Shown here: positions 46,713 to 54,471 of the stretch, piece after piece
Position numbering within the stretch: position 1 is the stretch's first letter
Layout of the letters: every line of letters begins with the position of its first letter
Source of the DNA: Piscinibacter sp. XHJ-5
GTDB lineage: Bacteria > Pseudomonadota > Gammaproteobacteria > Burkholderiales > Burkholderiaceae_C
DNA: 64,000 nucleotides
Direction: 5' to 3'
NCBI RefSeq assembly: GCF_029855045.1
Contig: NZ_CP123228.1
Span: forward strand, 248,001 to 312,000
Translations under genes and position numbers: made by a program
Notes under the pieces: generated by a model
Databases searched by the model: none
What the model was told of the DNA's origin: nothing
What the model saw: the letters and a program-made list of their open reading frames with translations, nothing else

Positions 46713-47948
46713 TCACCGCGGTGACCAGCCCGGCAGTGCCTCCACCAGCGCCTGCCGCTTCTCCGCCCGCATCGGCCGCATGTGCGCAATCACCCAGCCG
46801 ACGCGCTCCTCGTTCACCTGACCGCTCGCCTGGTACCGCGCCCACTCCCGGTCGGGGCTGTGCAGCAGGCTGGCCAGCCACGCGGCCTCCGTCGGCGTGA
46901 GCCGGTCGACGCGCTTGTGCAGGTGGTGGCGCGCCGCTGCCGCCGCGCCGCACTGGCCGTCGCCCCACGGCGCCATCGCGAGGTACAGCTCCAGCACGCG
47001 CGCCTTGCCCAAGGTGCGATCGAGCTCCACGGCATACAGGAGCTCGCGCAGCTTGCGCAGGTGATGGCGCTCGCTGCCGGTGTAGAGCAGCTTGGCGAGC
47101 TGCTGCGACAGCGTGCTGCCGCCGCGCGCCGTGCCGCGCTCTCGATGGTTCAGCATCCAGGCGGCGGTGATCTCGCGCATGTCGTAGCCGGGATGCTCGT
47201 GGAAGCGCTGGTCCTCGGCTGCGATCACGGCACGCGGCAGCCACGTGCCGAAGCCGTGTGCCGGCAAGGGGCCGCAGGCCGGCTCGGCATGCAGCAGCGA
47301 ATCGGTGCCCAGCCCGTCGACGACGAAGCCTTCGATGTGCGGCGTGACGGAGAGCTGGCGCTGCGGCAGGCTGAGCCGAGCGTCGAGCCGCAGCGTGCCC
47401 TCGATGCGTGCCCGTCGCAGCTCGGGCAGCTCGTGCTCGAACAGCCGGTAGGCGCTGTCGAGCGGCGTCGGCGGCAGCGTCATCTCCAGCGTGGCGCCGC
47501 GTGCATCGAACGAGGCCTTCCATCGCGCCTTCACCCGGCGATCGTCGCCCAGCGCCAACTCGCCGCGCCATCGGTCCTGGGCAAGCCGATGCGCGTCGAT
47601 GGTGACGCGTGCCAACGCGACGGCATCGTCGCCCAGCTCGGGCAGGTGGATCCGGCACGGCGCGCAGGCGATCTGCCAATGCTGCGGATCCTCGCCGCTC
47701 TGCCATTGCACCGGCCCGAAGCGTGTCGCCAGCGTGCGGCCTTCGAGCCGTCGCAGCACCACCGGATGGGTGGCGATGCGCAGCAGCGTGGGCACGCTCG
47801 CGTCGAACCGCCACGGGCCCCATTGCACGGGATGCGACCACTCGCCTGGCGCGGCGCGCAGCAGGATCCAGCCACCCCATGCCACCGCGGTGACCACCAG
47901 CATCCCGGCCAGCAGCACGCCGCCAGCCAGGAGCGCCACGCGTCTCAC
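46713..47948 (-). CDS. GT51 peptidoglycan glycosyltransferase, last gene of the exosortase cluster
   Basis: 411 residues. One N-terminal membrane segment (about 4-30), then about 200 residues of unassigned periplasmic sequence containing a CAPC pair (residues 95-98), then a GT51 domain. The catalytic Glu is in EDQRFHEHPGYD (from residue 245), GGSTLSQQLAKLL follows (276-288), and LELYLAMAPWGDGQ matches the third GT51 motif. GT51 enzymes polymerise lipid II into glycan chains. There is no transpeptidase domain, and the extra N-terminal domain distinguishes it from MtgA (about 240 residues). GTG 47948 overlaps the exosortase stop as GTGA, so the two are translated together. Confidence 0.85.
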   Translation of the reverse strand: MRRVALLAGGVLLAGMLVVTAVAWGGWILLRAAPGEWSHPVQWGPWRFDASVPTLLRIATHPVVLRRLEGRTLATRFGPVQWQSGEDPQHWQIACAPCRIHLPELGDDAVALARVTIDAHRLAQDRWRGELALGDDRRVKARWKASFDARGATLEMTLPPTPLDSAYRLFEHELPELRRARIEGTLRLDARLSLPQRQLSVTPHIEGFVVDGLGTDSLLHAEPACGPLPAHGFGTWLPRAVIAAEDQRFHEHPGYDMREITAAWMLNHRERGTARGGSTLSQQLAKLLYTGSERHHLRKLRELLYAVELDRTLGKARVLELYLAMAPWGDGQCGAAAAARHHLHKRVDRLTPTEAAWLASLLHSPDREWARYQASGQVNEERVGWVIAHMRPMRAEKRQALVEALPGWSPR

Positions 47949-49321
47949 AGCGGCCTCGCAAGCGTGATGGCCTGCCAGGGACCGGTCGACTGCCCCAGCT
48001 GCGCGGCCCAGAACCAGCTGGAGGCGTCGGTGTAGGCCTGCCCCCGCGCATCGACGATGCGCTCGCAGACGCGCAGCCGCATGCCGTCGCGTTCTGCCAC
48101 GAAGCAGCGCCACAGCCGTTCTTCGCCGTCGCGCTCGAGGCGGGCCTGCTCGATGCGGTAGCCGAGTCCGCGGTAGCAGTCGGTGGCCGGATGCAGCATG
48201 CGCGTCGGCGCCGTCACCTCTCGCCAGACGAGCACCTGCTCGCCATCGGTGAGTCGCGCGATGCGGCCGGGAAAGCGATCGGCAAAGCGCTGCTCGACGG
48301 CGGTGAGCGCCAGCGGACGCAGCTCCCGGCCTTCCCATTCGATGGGCGACTCGCTGCCCGCGCGGGACATCGGCGCAGGCGATGTGTGGGCCAGCGGCAG
48401 CAACGCACAGCTGATTGCGACGCCGACGAACAGGGCGCGCCATCCGTCAGTTCCGCAAGCCGCCGATCCCCCGCGCAGCGGCCGCGCCAGCGCAGCGCCG
48501 GGAGCGCGCACGACCAGTGCCGCGACGGCCGTGCACACCGCGGCCAGCACGACCAGGCCAACGCCCTGATGCGCCGCCGCGGCGACGTCGCCGCGTGCCT
48601 CCAGCGCCACCAGCACGCTGTTGCGCAGCACGTTGCCGAGCAGCACGATGGCGCCCGTCCACGGCAGCCGGCGCAACAGGCGCCGGTCGTCGATCCCGGT
48701 GAACAGGGCCACCGCGCAGGCGCAGAAGTACGCCATCCACACCATCTGCACGCCGGCGCACGGCGCGTCGACGATGACCAGCCGGCCATCGACGACCAGC
48801 GAGGCGCCTGCCCGCTGTGCGCTCCAGCCGAGCAGCTGCAGCGTCCAGGCGCTCAGCTGCGCAGTGGCGAGTCGCAGCGGATAGCCGGCATAGAACTGCA
48901 GCGAGGACACCACCGGCAGCGCGAGCACCGCCAGCCCGGCCAGCGGCAGAGTGGGCTGACCCGTCGGCATGAAGGCGCGCAGGCCGCAGGCCAGCGCGAG
49001 CGCGGCCAGCAAGGCGCCGACCAGCGGCGGCGCGACGAACACCGCTGCGGTCGATGCGGCGCTCAGCAGCAAGGCGGCGGCCAGCCATGCCGGGCGCGGC
49101 TGGCCGCGCAGCTGCGGCGCCAGCCGCCACACGGCCCACGCGAGCACGCCGAGTGCCGCCACGCCCAGCGGGTCGTCCGAGCCGTCGGCCATGCGCGCCG
49201 CGGCCCAGCGCCAATGCACCCACAGCGCCGCCGCCTGCAATGCGAGCCAGCCCCAGGGCGGGATGGCGGCGATGCGGCTGCTCCAGCGCGCGCCGGGGGT
49301 GGTGAAGATCACGCGATTCAT
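47945..49321 (-). CDS. Exosortase with fused C-terminal EpsI-like domain
   Basis: 458 residues. The first 290 residues are a multi-pass membrane domain with the exosortase catalytic triad: Cys188 in VDAPCAGVQMVW, Arg233 in LLGNVLRNSVLV and His251 in AAHQGVGLVV. After the last membrane segment a soluble domain follows (about residues 320-458) with HPATDCYRGLGYRIEQ, resembling EpsI-type exosortase-associated domains. Exosortases recognise PEP-CTERM-like tails and cleave or transfer the protein during export. It lies 10 bp after the VIT/VWA protein, whose tail fits as substrate. I cannot say which named exosortase subfamily it belongs to. Confidence 0.85.
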   Translation of the reverse strand: MNRVIFTTPGARWSSRIAAIPPWGWLALQAAALWVHWRWAAARMADGSDDPLGVAALGVLAWAVWRLAPQLRGQPRPAWLAAALLLSAASTAAVFVAPPLVGALLAALALACGLRAFMPTGQPTLPLAGLAVLALPVVSSLQFYAGYPLRLATAQLSAWTLQLLGWSAQRAGASLVVDGRLVIVDAPCAGVQMVWMAYFCACAVALFTGIDDRRLLRRLPWTGAIVLLGNVLRNSVLVALEARGDVAAAAHQGVGLVVLAAVCTAVAALVVRAPGAALARPLRGGSAACGTDGWRALFVGVAISCALLPLAHTSPAPMSRAGSESPIEWEGRELRPLALTAVEQRFADRFPGRIARLTDGEQVLVWREVTAPTRMLHPATDCYRGLGYRIEQARLERDGEERLWRCFVAERDGMRLRVCERIVDARGQAYTDASSWFWAAQLGQSTGPWQAITLARPL

Positions 49322-49331
49322 CGGCCGTCCC

Positions 49332-53737: not shown

Positions 53738-53766
53738 CGGTTTCTTCCCGGCGGCGCGGGCTCGTG

Positions 53767-54471
53767 TCAAGACGGAAGGTTCGCCGGCAGATCCTCCGCC
53801 AGCGCATAGCCGGTGCCGCGGTGCGTGCGGATCGGGTCGAGCGTCGGTGCGATCGCCTTCATCTTGGCGCGCAGCGTCTTCACGTGCGCGTCGACCGTGC
53901 GGTCGAGGCTCTCGCCGGGGTCGTCCCACACGCGCTCGAGCAAGGCGTCGCGGGTGTACACATGACCGGGCCGCGCCGCCAGCGTCTTCAGCAGGCCGTA
54001 TTCGTAGCGCGACAGCTCCAGCAGCCGGCCGTAGAAGCGGATTTGCCGGCGGCCGTCGTCGATGTGGATCGGCGTCGGCGCGCCGTGCGGCGCCACTGCC
54101 GGCTTGGCCGCGCGGCGCAGGATGGTGCGCACCCGGGCCACCAGCTCGCGCGGCGAAAACGGCTTCGGCACGTAGTCGTCGGCGCCGAGCTCGAGCCCGA
54201 CCACGCGGTCGATCTCGTCGCTGCGGGCGGTGAGGAACAGCGCCGGCACGTCGGCGATTTCGTGCAGCTGCTTGAAGAGCTCGAAGCCGTTCAGATCGGG
54301 CAGCCCCACGTCGAGGATCACCAGCGCCGGCGGCTGCGCGCGGAACTTCGACAGCGCCTCCTCGCCGGTGGCCGCCCAGGCCGGCTCGAAGCCGTCGGTA
54401 CGCAGCGCGTACTGCAGCGTGTCGGCGATGCCGGGCTCGTCTTCGACGATGAGGATGCGGGGCTTGGCCAC
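53767..54471 (-). CDS. creB: CreB-like OmpR/PhoB-family response regulator
   Basis: 234 residues. Receiver domain with the acidic pair in VEDEPG, phospho-acceptor Asp54 in LVILDVGLPDLNGFELF and the switch Lys in DDYVPKPFSPREL; C-terminal winged helix with LSRYEYGLLKTLAARPGHVYTRDALLERVW and RTHRGTGYAL. The length matches CreB (229). GTG 54471 starts the family N-terminus AKPRILIVEDEPG and lies 7 bp after the cysK stop, so it may be co-transcribed with cysK. The likely target is the tag at 51431-51446. Confidence 0.9.
   Translation of the reverse strand: MAKPRILIVEDEPGIADTLQYALRTDGFEPAWAATGEEALSKFRAQPPALVILDVGLPDLNGFELFKQLHEIADVPALFLTARSDEIDRVVGLELGADDYVPKPFSPRELVARVRTILRRAAKPAVAPHGAPTPIHIDDGRRQIRFYGRLLELSRYEYGLLKTLAARPGHVYTRDALLERVWDDPGESLDRTVDAHVKTLRAKMKAIAPTLDPIRTHRGTGYALAEDLPANLPS

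What the first reader, a model, noticed from the sequence alone, without database searches (positions are those of the whole stretch)
46713..54471. Candidate CreBC-controlled single-substrate exosortase system
Seen directly: six consecutive minus-strand genes with tight spacing encode a CreB-like regulator, an unknown secreted protein, a CreC-like kinase, a VIT/VWA protein with a PEP-CTERM-like tail, an exosortase with complete Cys/Arg/His residues, and a GT51 glycosyltransferase. Known: a proteobacterial dedicated sortase system pairs a kinase, a regulator, a VIT-domain target and a sortase; in Bacteroidota an exosortase (XrtN) pairs with a VIT protein. Inference: this is the exosortase counterpart in betaproteobacteria, built around one target, with a peptidoglycan synthase as an added partner. 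I cannot tell whether the subfamily has already been named.
Basis: partly seen in the sequence, partly recalled or inferred. Interest (0 to 1): 0.8.

Follow-up and report, generated by a model that had tools for sequence, protein, structure and literature searches.

The report
CreB-controlled single-target exosortase operon
A bacterial protein-anchoring enzyme (an exosortase) that seems to serve only the one surface-type protein encoded next to it sits in an operon whose promoter carries the DNA docking site of the stress regulator CreB, so for once both the client and the switch of such an enzyme can be named and tested.

Summary
In detail: six minus-strand genes, 46713-54471, encode CreB, a secreted protein, CreC, a VIT/VWA protein with a PEP-CTERM-like tail, an exosortase and a GT51 glycosyltransferase. 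The exosortase subfamily is already named, exosortase Q (NF012182, 357.8 bits, cut-off 270).

New here is evidence for a dedicated pair and for its control. In 80 XrtQ loci a close VIT homologue lies directly upstream in 77; of the other three, one contig is truncated, one has a distant VIT protein, one a PEP-tailed fragment. Of 50 XrtQ genomes searched, 39 have no other exosortase; at E<=0.001 their only PEP-CTERM hit, where there is one (6 of 39), is that VIT gene. A model of VIT tails agrees.

An exact CreB box, TTCAC-N6-TTCAC, lies about 75 nt before the VIT start, and in 47 of 54 other non-Pseudomonas loci but 0 of 20 Pseudomonas loci (shuffled mean 0.04). Four loci keep it with creC on another contig.

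GT51 is a lineage-specific addition; the secreted protein is rare. Acceptor and function of the VIT protein remain unknown.

The parts
53767..54471 (-). creB: OmpR-type response regulator, CreB equivalog
   Evidence: NF008296 315.8 bits, cut-off 273
52928..53737 (-). secreted protein of unknown family (269 aa) between creB and creC; rare; predicted fold distantly like PelC/CsgG/HpaA/FlgT periplasmic proteins
   Evidence: No Pfam or NCBIfam match; 35 database proteins including itself; homologues in 2 of 80 XrtQ loci; model pLDDT 89.3, best PDB matches E about 2e-5 with TM-scores about 0.3-0.5
51463..52896 (-). creC: sensor histidine kinase, CreC equivalog; the one match at E<=1e-90 in the genome
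   Evidence: NF008312 568.9 bits, cut-off 356; one match in G000, 24 of 126 first-look candidates scored
51431..51446 (-). CreB box (cre tag) TTCAC-N6-TTCAC, about 75 nt upstream of the VIT start codon
   Evidence: Exact match; 2 in 64 kb against 0.05 expected; exact in 47 of 54 other non-Pseudomonas loci
49332..51356 (-). VIT/VWA protein, proposed sole client of XrtQ: VIT domain, VWA domain with a DxSGS motif (read from the sequence), C-terminal tail
   Evidence: PF08487 116.3 bits, PF13768 69.5 bits; TIGR03788 426.6 bits, under its cut-off 551.65
49335..49427 (-). codons of the sorting tail: VPSTPEP motif, hydrophobic stretch, Arg cluster
   Evidence: PEP in 77 of 78 tails; tail model A2 63.0 bits in the own genome (this tail is one of the 29 in the model)
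47945..49321 (-). xrtQ: exosortase Q with a C-terminal domain that resembles EpsI (resemblance recalled, no Pfam match)
   Evidence: NF012182 357.8 bits, cut-off 270; PF09721 87.7 bits; Cys/Arg/His invariant
46713..47939 (-). GT51 peptidoglycan glycosyltransferase with one N-terminal helix (taken as a membrane helix) and an extra beta-rich domain
   Evidence: PF00912 136.2 bits; 408-aa database copy; model pLDDT 85.5, best PDB match 3nb6 E 4.3e-9

Best explanation
This is an operon for one anchored protein. The VIT/VWA precursor is exported and held in the inner membrane by its C-terminal helix with arginines on the cytoplasmic side; XrtQ recognises the VP(S/G)TPEP tail, cuts it with Cys188 and passes the protein to an unknown acceptor. 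Phosphorylated CreB binds the TTCAC-N6-TTCAC box before the VIT gene and switches on VIT, xrtQ and, in many lineages, a GT51 glycan polymerase, as part of a response to peptidoglycan stress or to the metabolic state. Shown by sequence: gene order, pairing, tail motif, no other detectable PEP-CTERM client at the thresholds used in single-exosortase genomes, conserved CreB box. Inferred: export, cleavage and transfer, CreB binding, the inducing signal, the role of GT51.
For: A VIT homologue directly upstream of xrtQ, same strand, in 77 of 80 loci. Of the three others L078 is cut off by the contig end; L080 has a distant VIT protein with a PEP tail upstream (PF08487 39.2 bits, cut-off 26.5); L081 a PEP-tailed fragment without a Pfam match. 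PEP in 77 of 78 VIT tails, usually as V-P-(S/G)-T-P-E-P, then a hydrophobic stretch and arginines. Of 50 XrtQ genomes 39 have only this exosortase; in 33 of the 39 no PEP-CTERM match at E<=0.001, in 6 exactly one, at the adjacent VIT gene; the 11 genomes with further exosortases have 2 to 32. Tail model A2 over 51 genomes: 49 VIT tails score 46.5-77.8 bits, the next match anywhere 40.3; no single-exosortase genome has a second match in the listed part, which ends at E 2.8e-4. CreB box: exact before VIT in 47 of 54 non-Pseudomonas loci; 50 rounds of shuffles give mean 0.04, maximum 1; 51 of 53 exact boxes in 1.51 Mb of these loci lie there; 35 promoters less than 70% alike keep it, with further TTC half-sites in about 11-nt steps (no significance test). 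The published CreB site is TTCACN6TTCAC upstream of creD (PMC4689548, passages seen). The box is kept though the only creC match is on another contig of a draft genome: L032, L035, L069, L071. The same pattern hits creD promoters in two of six relatives.
Against: No experiment. Absence of other clients rests on tail models. E 0.001 is stricter than the PEP-CTERM family cut-off of 16 bits: the window's own VIT tail (E 0.031) would be missed at that level, so weak clients could be too. 20 of the 39 single-exosortase genomes have 1 to 3 further, unlisted tail matches at E<=0.1, and in 29 of 51 genomes only 142 of the first-look candidates were scored. The window's own genome has 17 other PEP-CTERM proteins over cut-off. 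All 20 Pseudomonas loci lack the exact box and GT51 although the 18 of them searched have creC, so CreB control is not universal. Seven of 54 non-Pseudomonas loci lack an exact box, three of them with creBC in the locus. Ottowia L061 keeps two boxes although its genome has no CreC match at E<=1e-90, only a partial one. The VIT protein falls under the cut-off of TIGR03788 and, in the protein scan, of PEP-CTERM.
Confidence: 0.78

Rival explanations
1. XrtQ is a general exosortase that also handles other PEP-CTERM proteins; the VIT gene is only its nearest client.
For: The own genome has 17 other PEP-CTERM proteins over cut-off, and VIT tails are recognisably PEP-CTERM-like.
Against: Two XrtB exosortases are present in the own genome; ten reading frames from their two loci were scanned, and the L105 locus has a glycosyltransferase, an AAA_31/CbiA ATPase match and a rotamase-domain protein. 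In 39 of 39 genomes whose only exosortase is XrtQ no other PEP-CTERM protein reaches E 0.001.
Confidence: 0.12
2. CreBC is merely a syntenic neighbour and does not regulate the VIT-xrtQ genes.
For: In the 18 Pseudomonas genomes searched creC is present, not in the XrtQ locus, and the VIT promoter has no exact box. Seven of 54 non-Pseudomonas loci lack an exact box.
Against: The box is exact in 47 of 54 non-Pseudomonas promoters against 0.04 expected and stays when creC is on another contig (L032, L035, L069, L071). Panacagrimonas (L033), with no creC match, has no box.
Confidence: 0.07
3. The GT51 enzyme is an essential partner that provides the acceptor (lipid II or nascent peptidoglycan) for the exosortase reaction.
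For: GT51 follows xrtQ in 46 of 57 non-Pseudomonas loci with room, 5 nt after it in the window.
Against: Not next to xrtQ in any of the 20 Pseudomonas loci nor in Azoarcus, Panacagrimonas and others, where XrtQ and the VIT tail are kept; two Variovorax loci have a GT51 match some 9-10 kb away (L030, L052). Whether those genomes supply a GT51 elsewhere was not searched.
Confidence: 0.15

Closest known systems
Exosortase Q (NCBIfam NF012182)
   Same: The gene passes the curated cut-off (357.8 against 270 bits); several database relatives are named exosortase Q.
   Different: The name covers the enzyme. I found no paper on the dedicated VIT client, the CreB box or the GT51 neighbour (listings, 20 of 34 shown); the NCBIfam text itself could not be read.
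Proteobacterial dedicated sortase system (TIGR03784 class GN sortase, TIGR03785, TIGR03787, TIGR03788)
   Same: One VIT/VWA client beside its transpeptidase, with a two-component system (system as named by the models and recalled).
   Different: Unrelated transpeptidase; CreB scores 132.4 against 335.7, CreC 96.4 against 612.2, VIT 426.6 against 551.65. VIT proteins of the two systems form separate branches.
Exosortase N with its VIT protein (TIGR04476, TIGR04477; Bacteroidota recalled)
   Same: Exosortase paired with a VIT protein; NCBIfam names TIGR04477 'XrtN system VIT domain-containing protein'.
   Different: The window's exosortase scores 48.1 against the XrtN cut-off of 200.
Exosortase T (NF033770)
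   Different: The window's exosortase scores 77.9 against 250; VIT branches are separate.
CreBC(D) regulon of E. coli, Aeromonas and P. aeruginosa
   Same: CreB and CreC equivalogs and the published box TTCACN6TTCAC.
   Different: In the window the boxed gene after creC is VIT, followed by xrtQ and GT51, not creD; the genome's creD is elsewhere (C1:6627708), with no exact box near it.

Membership tests
Exosortase Q | Score over the curated NCBIfam cut-off | tested here: met
   357.8 against 270 bits
Exosortase Q | Cys/Arg/His residues of exosortases | tested here: met
   C188, R233, H251 invariant in 32 sequences
PEP-CTERM/EpsH (XrtA or XrtB type) multi-client system | Many PEP-CTERM clients | tested here: not met
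   0 or 1 PEP-CTERM match at E<=0.001 in 39 of 39 single-exosortase XrtQ genomes
PEP-CTERM/EpsH (XrtA or XrtB type) multi-client system | Score over XrtA cut-off | tested here: not met
   27.0 against 208 bits
PEP-CTERM sorting domain TIGR02595 | Tail over cut-off 16 bits | tested here: inconclusive
   12.8 bits in the protein scan, 18.8 bits in the genome search
Proteobacterial dedicated sortase system | Class GN sortase next to the VIT gene | tested here: not met
   The neighbour is an exosortase
Proteobacterial dedicated sortase system | TIGR03788 target cut-off 551.65 | tested here: not met
   426.6 bits
CreBC two-component system | CreB and CreC over equivalog cut-offs | tested here: met
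   315.8 against 273; 568.9 against 356
CreBC two-component system | CreB box before the regulated gene | tested here: met
   51431-51446; binding itself not tested
CreBC two-component system | creD next to creBC | tested here: not met
   creD at C1:6627708-6629081, the window at C1:248001-312000
XrtN/VIT system | Score over XrtN cut-off | tested here: not met
   48.1 against 200 bits
Any exosortase | Cleavage and transfer of the client | not testable with these tools

The most novel reading that the evidence does not exclude
VIT/VWA proteins form a stress-inducible envelope module whose anchoring enzyme has been exchanged several times between unrelated transpeptidases (class GN sortase, XrtQ, XrtT, XrtN), while the client type and a two-component switch stayed. 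CreBC stands beside both an exosortase version (this window) and a sortase version (L167), so in many Betaproteobacteria and some Gammaproteobacteria a main output of CreBC may be a covalently anchored surface protein made when peptidoglycan is damaged.
Probability: 0.4. Interest if true: 0.78.

Novelty: new variant of a known kind. Interest (0 to 1): 0.63.

Why it matters
Exosortases usually have many clients of unknown role, which makes them hard to study. Here one enzyme, one client and one promoter site can be named in genera such as Variovorax and Rhizobacter, so cleavage, acceptor and signal can be tested directly. It also suggests an output for CreBC beyond creD: an anchored VIT/VWA protein with, in many lineages, a peptidoglycan polymerase, which would fit published CreBC activation by loss of PBP4 in P. 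aeruginosa (PMC2654508, passages seen).

Tried and rejected
Considered and rejected: XrtA, XrtN, XrtT or XrtO identity (scores far under cut-offs); the dedicated sortase system; GT51 as an obligatory neighbour; the secreted protein as a conserved part (2 of 80 loci); a private CreBC paralogue: 47 of 51 genomes have exactly one CreC match at E<=1e-90 and 4 none (mostly the best 24 first-look candidates scored). A Burkholderia biofilm operon with a CreB-family regulator (PMC5192318, passages) has a different kinase and no VIT or exosortase in the passages seen.

Led nowhere or weak: an alpha-2-macroglobulin/PBP1C pair in the own genome has the identical 16-nt box about 54 nt before its start, which looked like a shared regulon; but of 10 relatives' alpha-2-macroglobulin loci inspected, up to one mismatch, only Saezia (L238) has exact boxes there, in reverse orientation, so it is not conserved. 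The other six exact boxes of the own genome lie inside or at the edge of crude gene calls, one (L175) about 11 nt before a possible lipoprotein start; I did not follow them. No exact box occurs in 500 kb of partly overlapping loci L104-L170, mostly sortase- and XrtT-type VIT regions, including L167 where creBC stands beside a sortase. My first gene clustering collapsed and was replaced. Fold search of the GT51 model gave nothing meaningful beyond the catalytic domain.

Dropped before counts: 30 of 80 loci were not sent to the genome searches (limit of 50). In the box count 74 of 80 loci were usable (20 Pseudomonas, 54 others); left out were L054, L077, L103 (upstream truncated) and L078, L080, L081 (no VIT match to the window's protein). 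One search kept the best 80 of 268 candidates, so the set leans towards close relatives, Variovorax and Pseudomonas above all. The 43 loci counted with creB or creC include L080, whose regulator is only 37% like CreB. Box loci fetched: 30 of 41.
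Full report
What is there. The six genes exist as described, on the minus strand between 46713 and 54471, with gaps of 5 to 31 nt except for 106 nt between creC and the VIT gene. CreB and CreC pass the curated equivalog cut-offs, and the exosortase is exosortase Q. The VIT/VWA protein is nearest to the target family of the proteobacterial dedicated sortase system but below its cut-off (426.6 against 551.65 bits). 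Its solved relatives by sequence include PARP4 and inter-alpha-trypsin inhibitor heavy chains. The GT51 protein has one N-terminal helix, an extra beta-rich domain and a catalytic domain like solved peptidoglycan glycosyltransferases. The secreted protein between creB and creC has no Pfam or NCBIfam match and a confident model that resembles PelC, CsgG, HpaA and FlgT only distantly.

Pairing. A scan of one genome per species found 268 XrtQ candidates, of which the best 80 were kept: 20 titled Pseudomonas, the rest mainly Burkholderiales and Rhodocyclales by their titles. A VIT homologue lies directly upstream on the same strand in 77 of 80. Of the three others, L078 is cut off by the contig end; L080 has a distant VIT protein with an N-terminal extra part and a PEP tail (PF08487 39.2 bits, cut-off 26.5; XrtN-system VIT model 105.5, cut-off 250) before an exosortase that is nearest to XrtQ but under its cut-off (139.5 against 270); L081 has an incomplete PEP-tailed reading frame, without a Pfam match, directly before the exosortase (164.5 against 270). 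GT51 follows in 46 of 57 non-Pseudomonas loci with room and in 0 of 20 Pseudomonas loci; creB or creC lies within the locus in 43 of 60 and 0 of 20. The core is therefore VIT plus XrtQ; CreBC linkage and GT51 are lineage additions.

One client. I searched 50 of the 80 genomes for exosortases and for PEP-CTERM tails at E<=0.001. In 39 XrtQ is the only exosortase. In 33 of these there is no PEP-CTERM match; in six exactly one, at the place of the VIT gene (G012, G025, G029, G033, G035, G037). The 11 genomes with additional exosortases have 2 to 32. This threshold is stricter than the family cut-off (the window's own VIT tail has E 0.031), so weak tails are missed. I therefore built a model from 29 VIT tails and searched 51 genomes. 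A VIT tail beside XrtQ is the top match in 49 (46.5 to 77.8 bits); the next best anywhere scores 40.3, in a genome with a second exosortase; in the two remaining genomes (those of L080 and L081) the neighbour's tail is found with 27.0 and 29.0 bits. No single-exosortase genome has a second match in the listing, which ends at E 2.8e-4, although 20 of the 39 have 1 to 3 weaker unlisted matches at E<=0.1, and in 29 of the 51 genomes only 142 candidates were scored. The VIT tails match by construction; the informative part is the lack of others. The window's own genome has two more exosortases, both XrtB, and 17 other PEP-CTERM proteins over cut-off, so for it dedication is inferred from relatives.

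Control. The gap between creC and VIT contains TTCACGCCGACTTCAC at 51431-51446. A paper on Stenotrophomonas CreD gives TTCACN6TTCAC as the cre/blr tag critical for CreB binding, with a homologue at about -80 to -65 of creD there (PMC4689548, passages); in the window the box ends about 75 nt before the VIT start. Exact boxes: 2 in the window against 0.05 expected; the other, at 5559, lies inside a reading frame. In the 80 loci 53 exact boxes occur in 1.51 Mb, of which 51, at 47 loci, stand before VIT. Of 54 non-Pseudomonas loci with a complete upstream region 47 have the box; shuffles of the same regions give 0.04 on average and 1 at most; 0 of 20 Pseudomonas loci have it. It is not mere near-identity: 35 promoters under 70% alike, the window's included, keep it and show further TTC half-sites near +32, +43, +53 and +64, about 11 nt apart (no significance test). 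Four loci (L032, L035, L069, L071) keep it although the single creC match of the draft genome lies on another contig. Panacagrimonas, with no creC match, has none; Ottowia L061, with only a partial creC match, has two. Seven non-Pseudomonas loci lack an exact box (L026, L033, L036, L038, L041, L056, L072), three of them with creB or creC in the locus; five of the seven have a site with one mismatch (L026, L038, L041, L056, L072). In six relatives the same pattern hit the creD promoter in two (G009, G036) and, in Variovorax G049, the space between the divergent creD and VIT genes. creD lies close to and divergent from VIT in seven genomes by coordinates (G001, G002, G004, G005, G046, G048, G049).

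Relation to other VIT systems. In 274 genomes of the class, 44 have a TIGR03788 match at E<=1e-60, the window's genome included. Most of the fetched ones have tails unlike PEP and I call them sortase-type; L136, L137 and L140 pair a VIT protein with exosortase T. In a tree of 61 VIT proteins the 28 sortase-type, 3 XrtT-type and 25 XrtQ-type members each form one group (support 100/98, 100/100 and 93/88). The sortase-type label rests on TIGR03788 score and tail; a sortase was identified by profile in one locus only, L167. L167 holds a class GN sortase (195.9 bits, cut-off 158.25) and a VIT gene divergent from CreB (315.5, cut-off 273) and CreC (541.2, cut-off 356) equivalogs, but no exact box.

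Mechanism. From the established behaviour of exosortases and CreBC (partly recalled), I propose export, membrane retention by the tail, cleavage near the VP(S/G)TPEP motif by Cys188, and transfer to an unknown acceptor, induced through CreB. CreBC responds to PBP4 loss in P. aeruginosa (PMC2654508, passages) and to carbon source and oxygen in E. coli (PMC3962086, passages). A peptidoglycan-stress signal would suit the GT51 gene, but that is inference.

Novelty. Exosortase Q is a named family, so the enzyme is known. No paper in the open PMC set contains XrtQ together with exosortase, and searches that combine exosortase with XrtN, VIT, von Willebrand, CreBC or dedicated-sortase terms listed nothing on this system (listings only, 20 of 34 papers shown). 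Subscription papers, preprints and the NCBIfam text were not available, so the pairing may have been noticed by curators. The CreB box and the single-client evidence appear new. I rate it a new variant of a known kind.

Noticed in passing
Pseudomonas loci L044, L045, L047, L048, L055, L057, L067, L086: These VIT promoters lack the exact CreB box but carry TCCAC-N6-TCCAC, a C-for-T variant with the same spacing, some 40-85 nt before the estimated start.
   Followed up: no
G000:C1:29904-29919 (L171, L179): The same 16-nt CreB box as in the window precedes an alpha-2-macroglobulin and PBP1C gene pair in the own genome.
   Followed up: partly
L101:9956-11435 and other Variovorax loci: In some Variovorax the exosortase and its C-terminal domain appear as two overlapping reading frames, so the domain may be separable; L080 shows the same split.
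   Followed up: no
L136, L137, L140: Exosortase T stands next to a VIT/VWA protein, a further exosortase-VIT pairing.
   Followed up: partly
L167:5568-10401: Class GN sortase and VIT gene stand divergent from CreB and CreC equivalogs, without an exact CreB box.
   Followed up: partly
L138:1095-3593: A VIT/VWA protein branches next to the XrtQ clients (51% identical over the best match to the window's protein) but ends without a PEP-type tail.
   Followed up: no
L080:7094-11287: A distant XrtQ relative, under the XrtQ cut-off, follows a VIT protein nearest to the XrtN-system VIT family, perhaps a link between the XrtN and XrtQ systems.
   Followed up: partly
L027:3300-4878: Two tandem copies of the secreted-protein family sit between creB and creC.
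   Followed up: no
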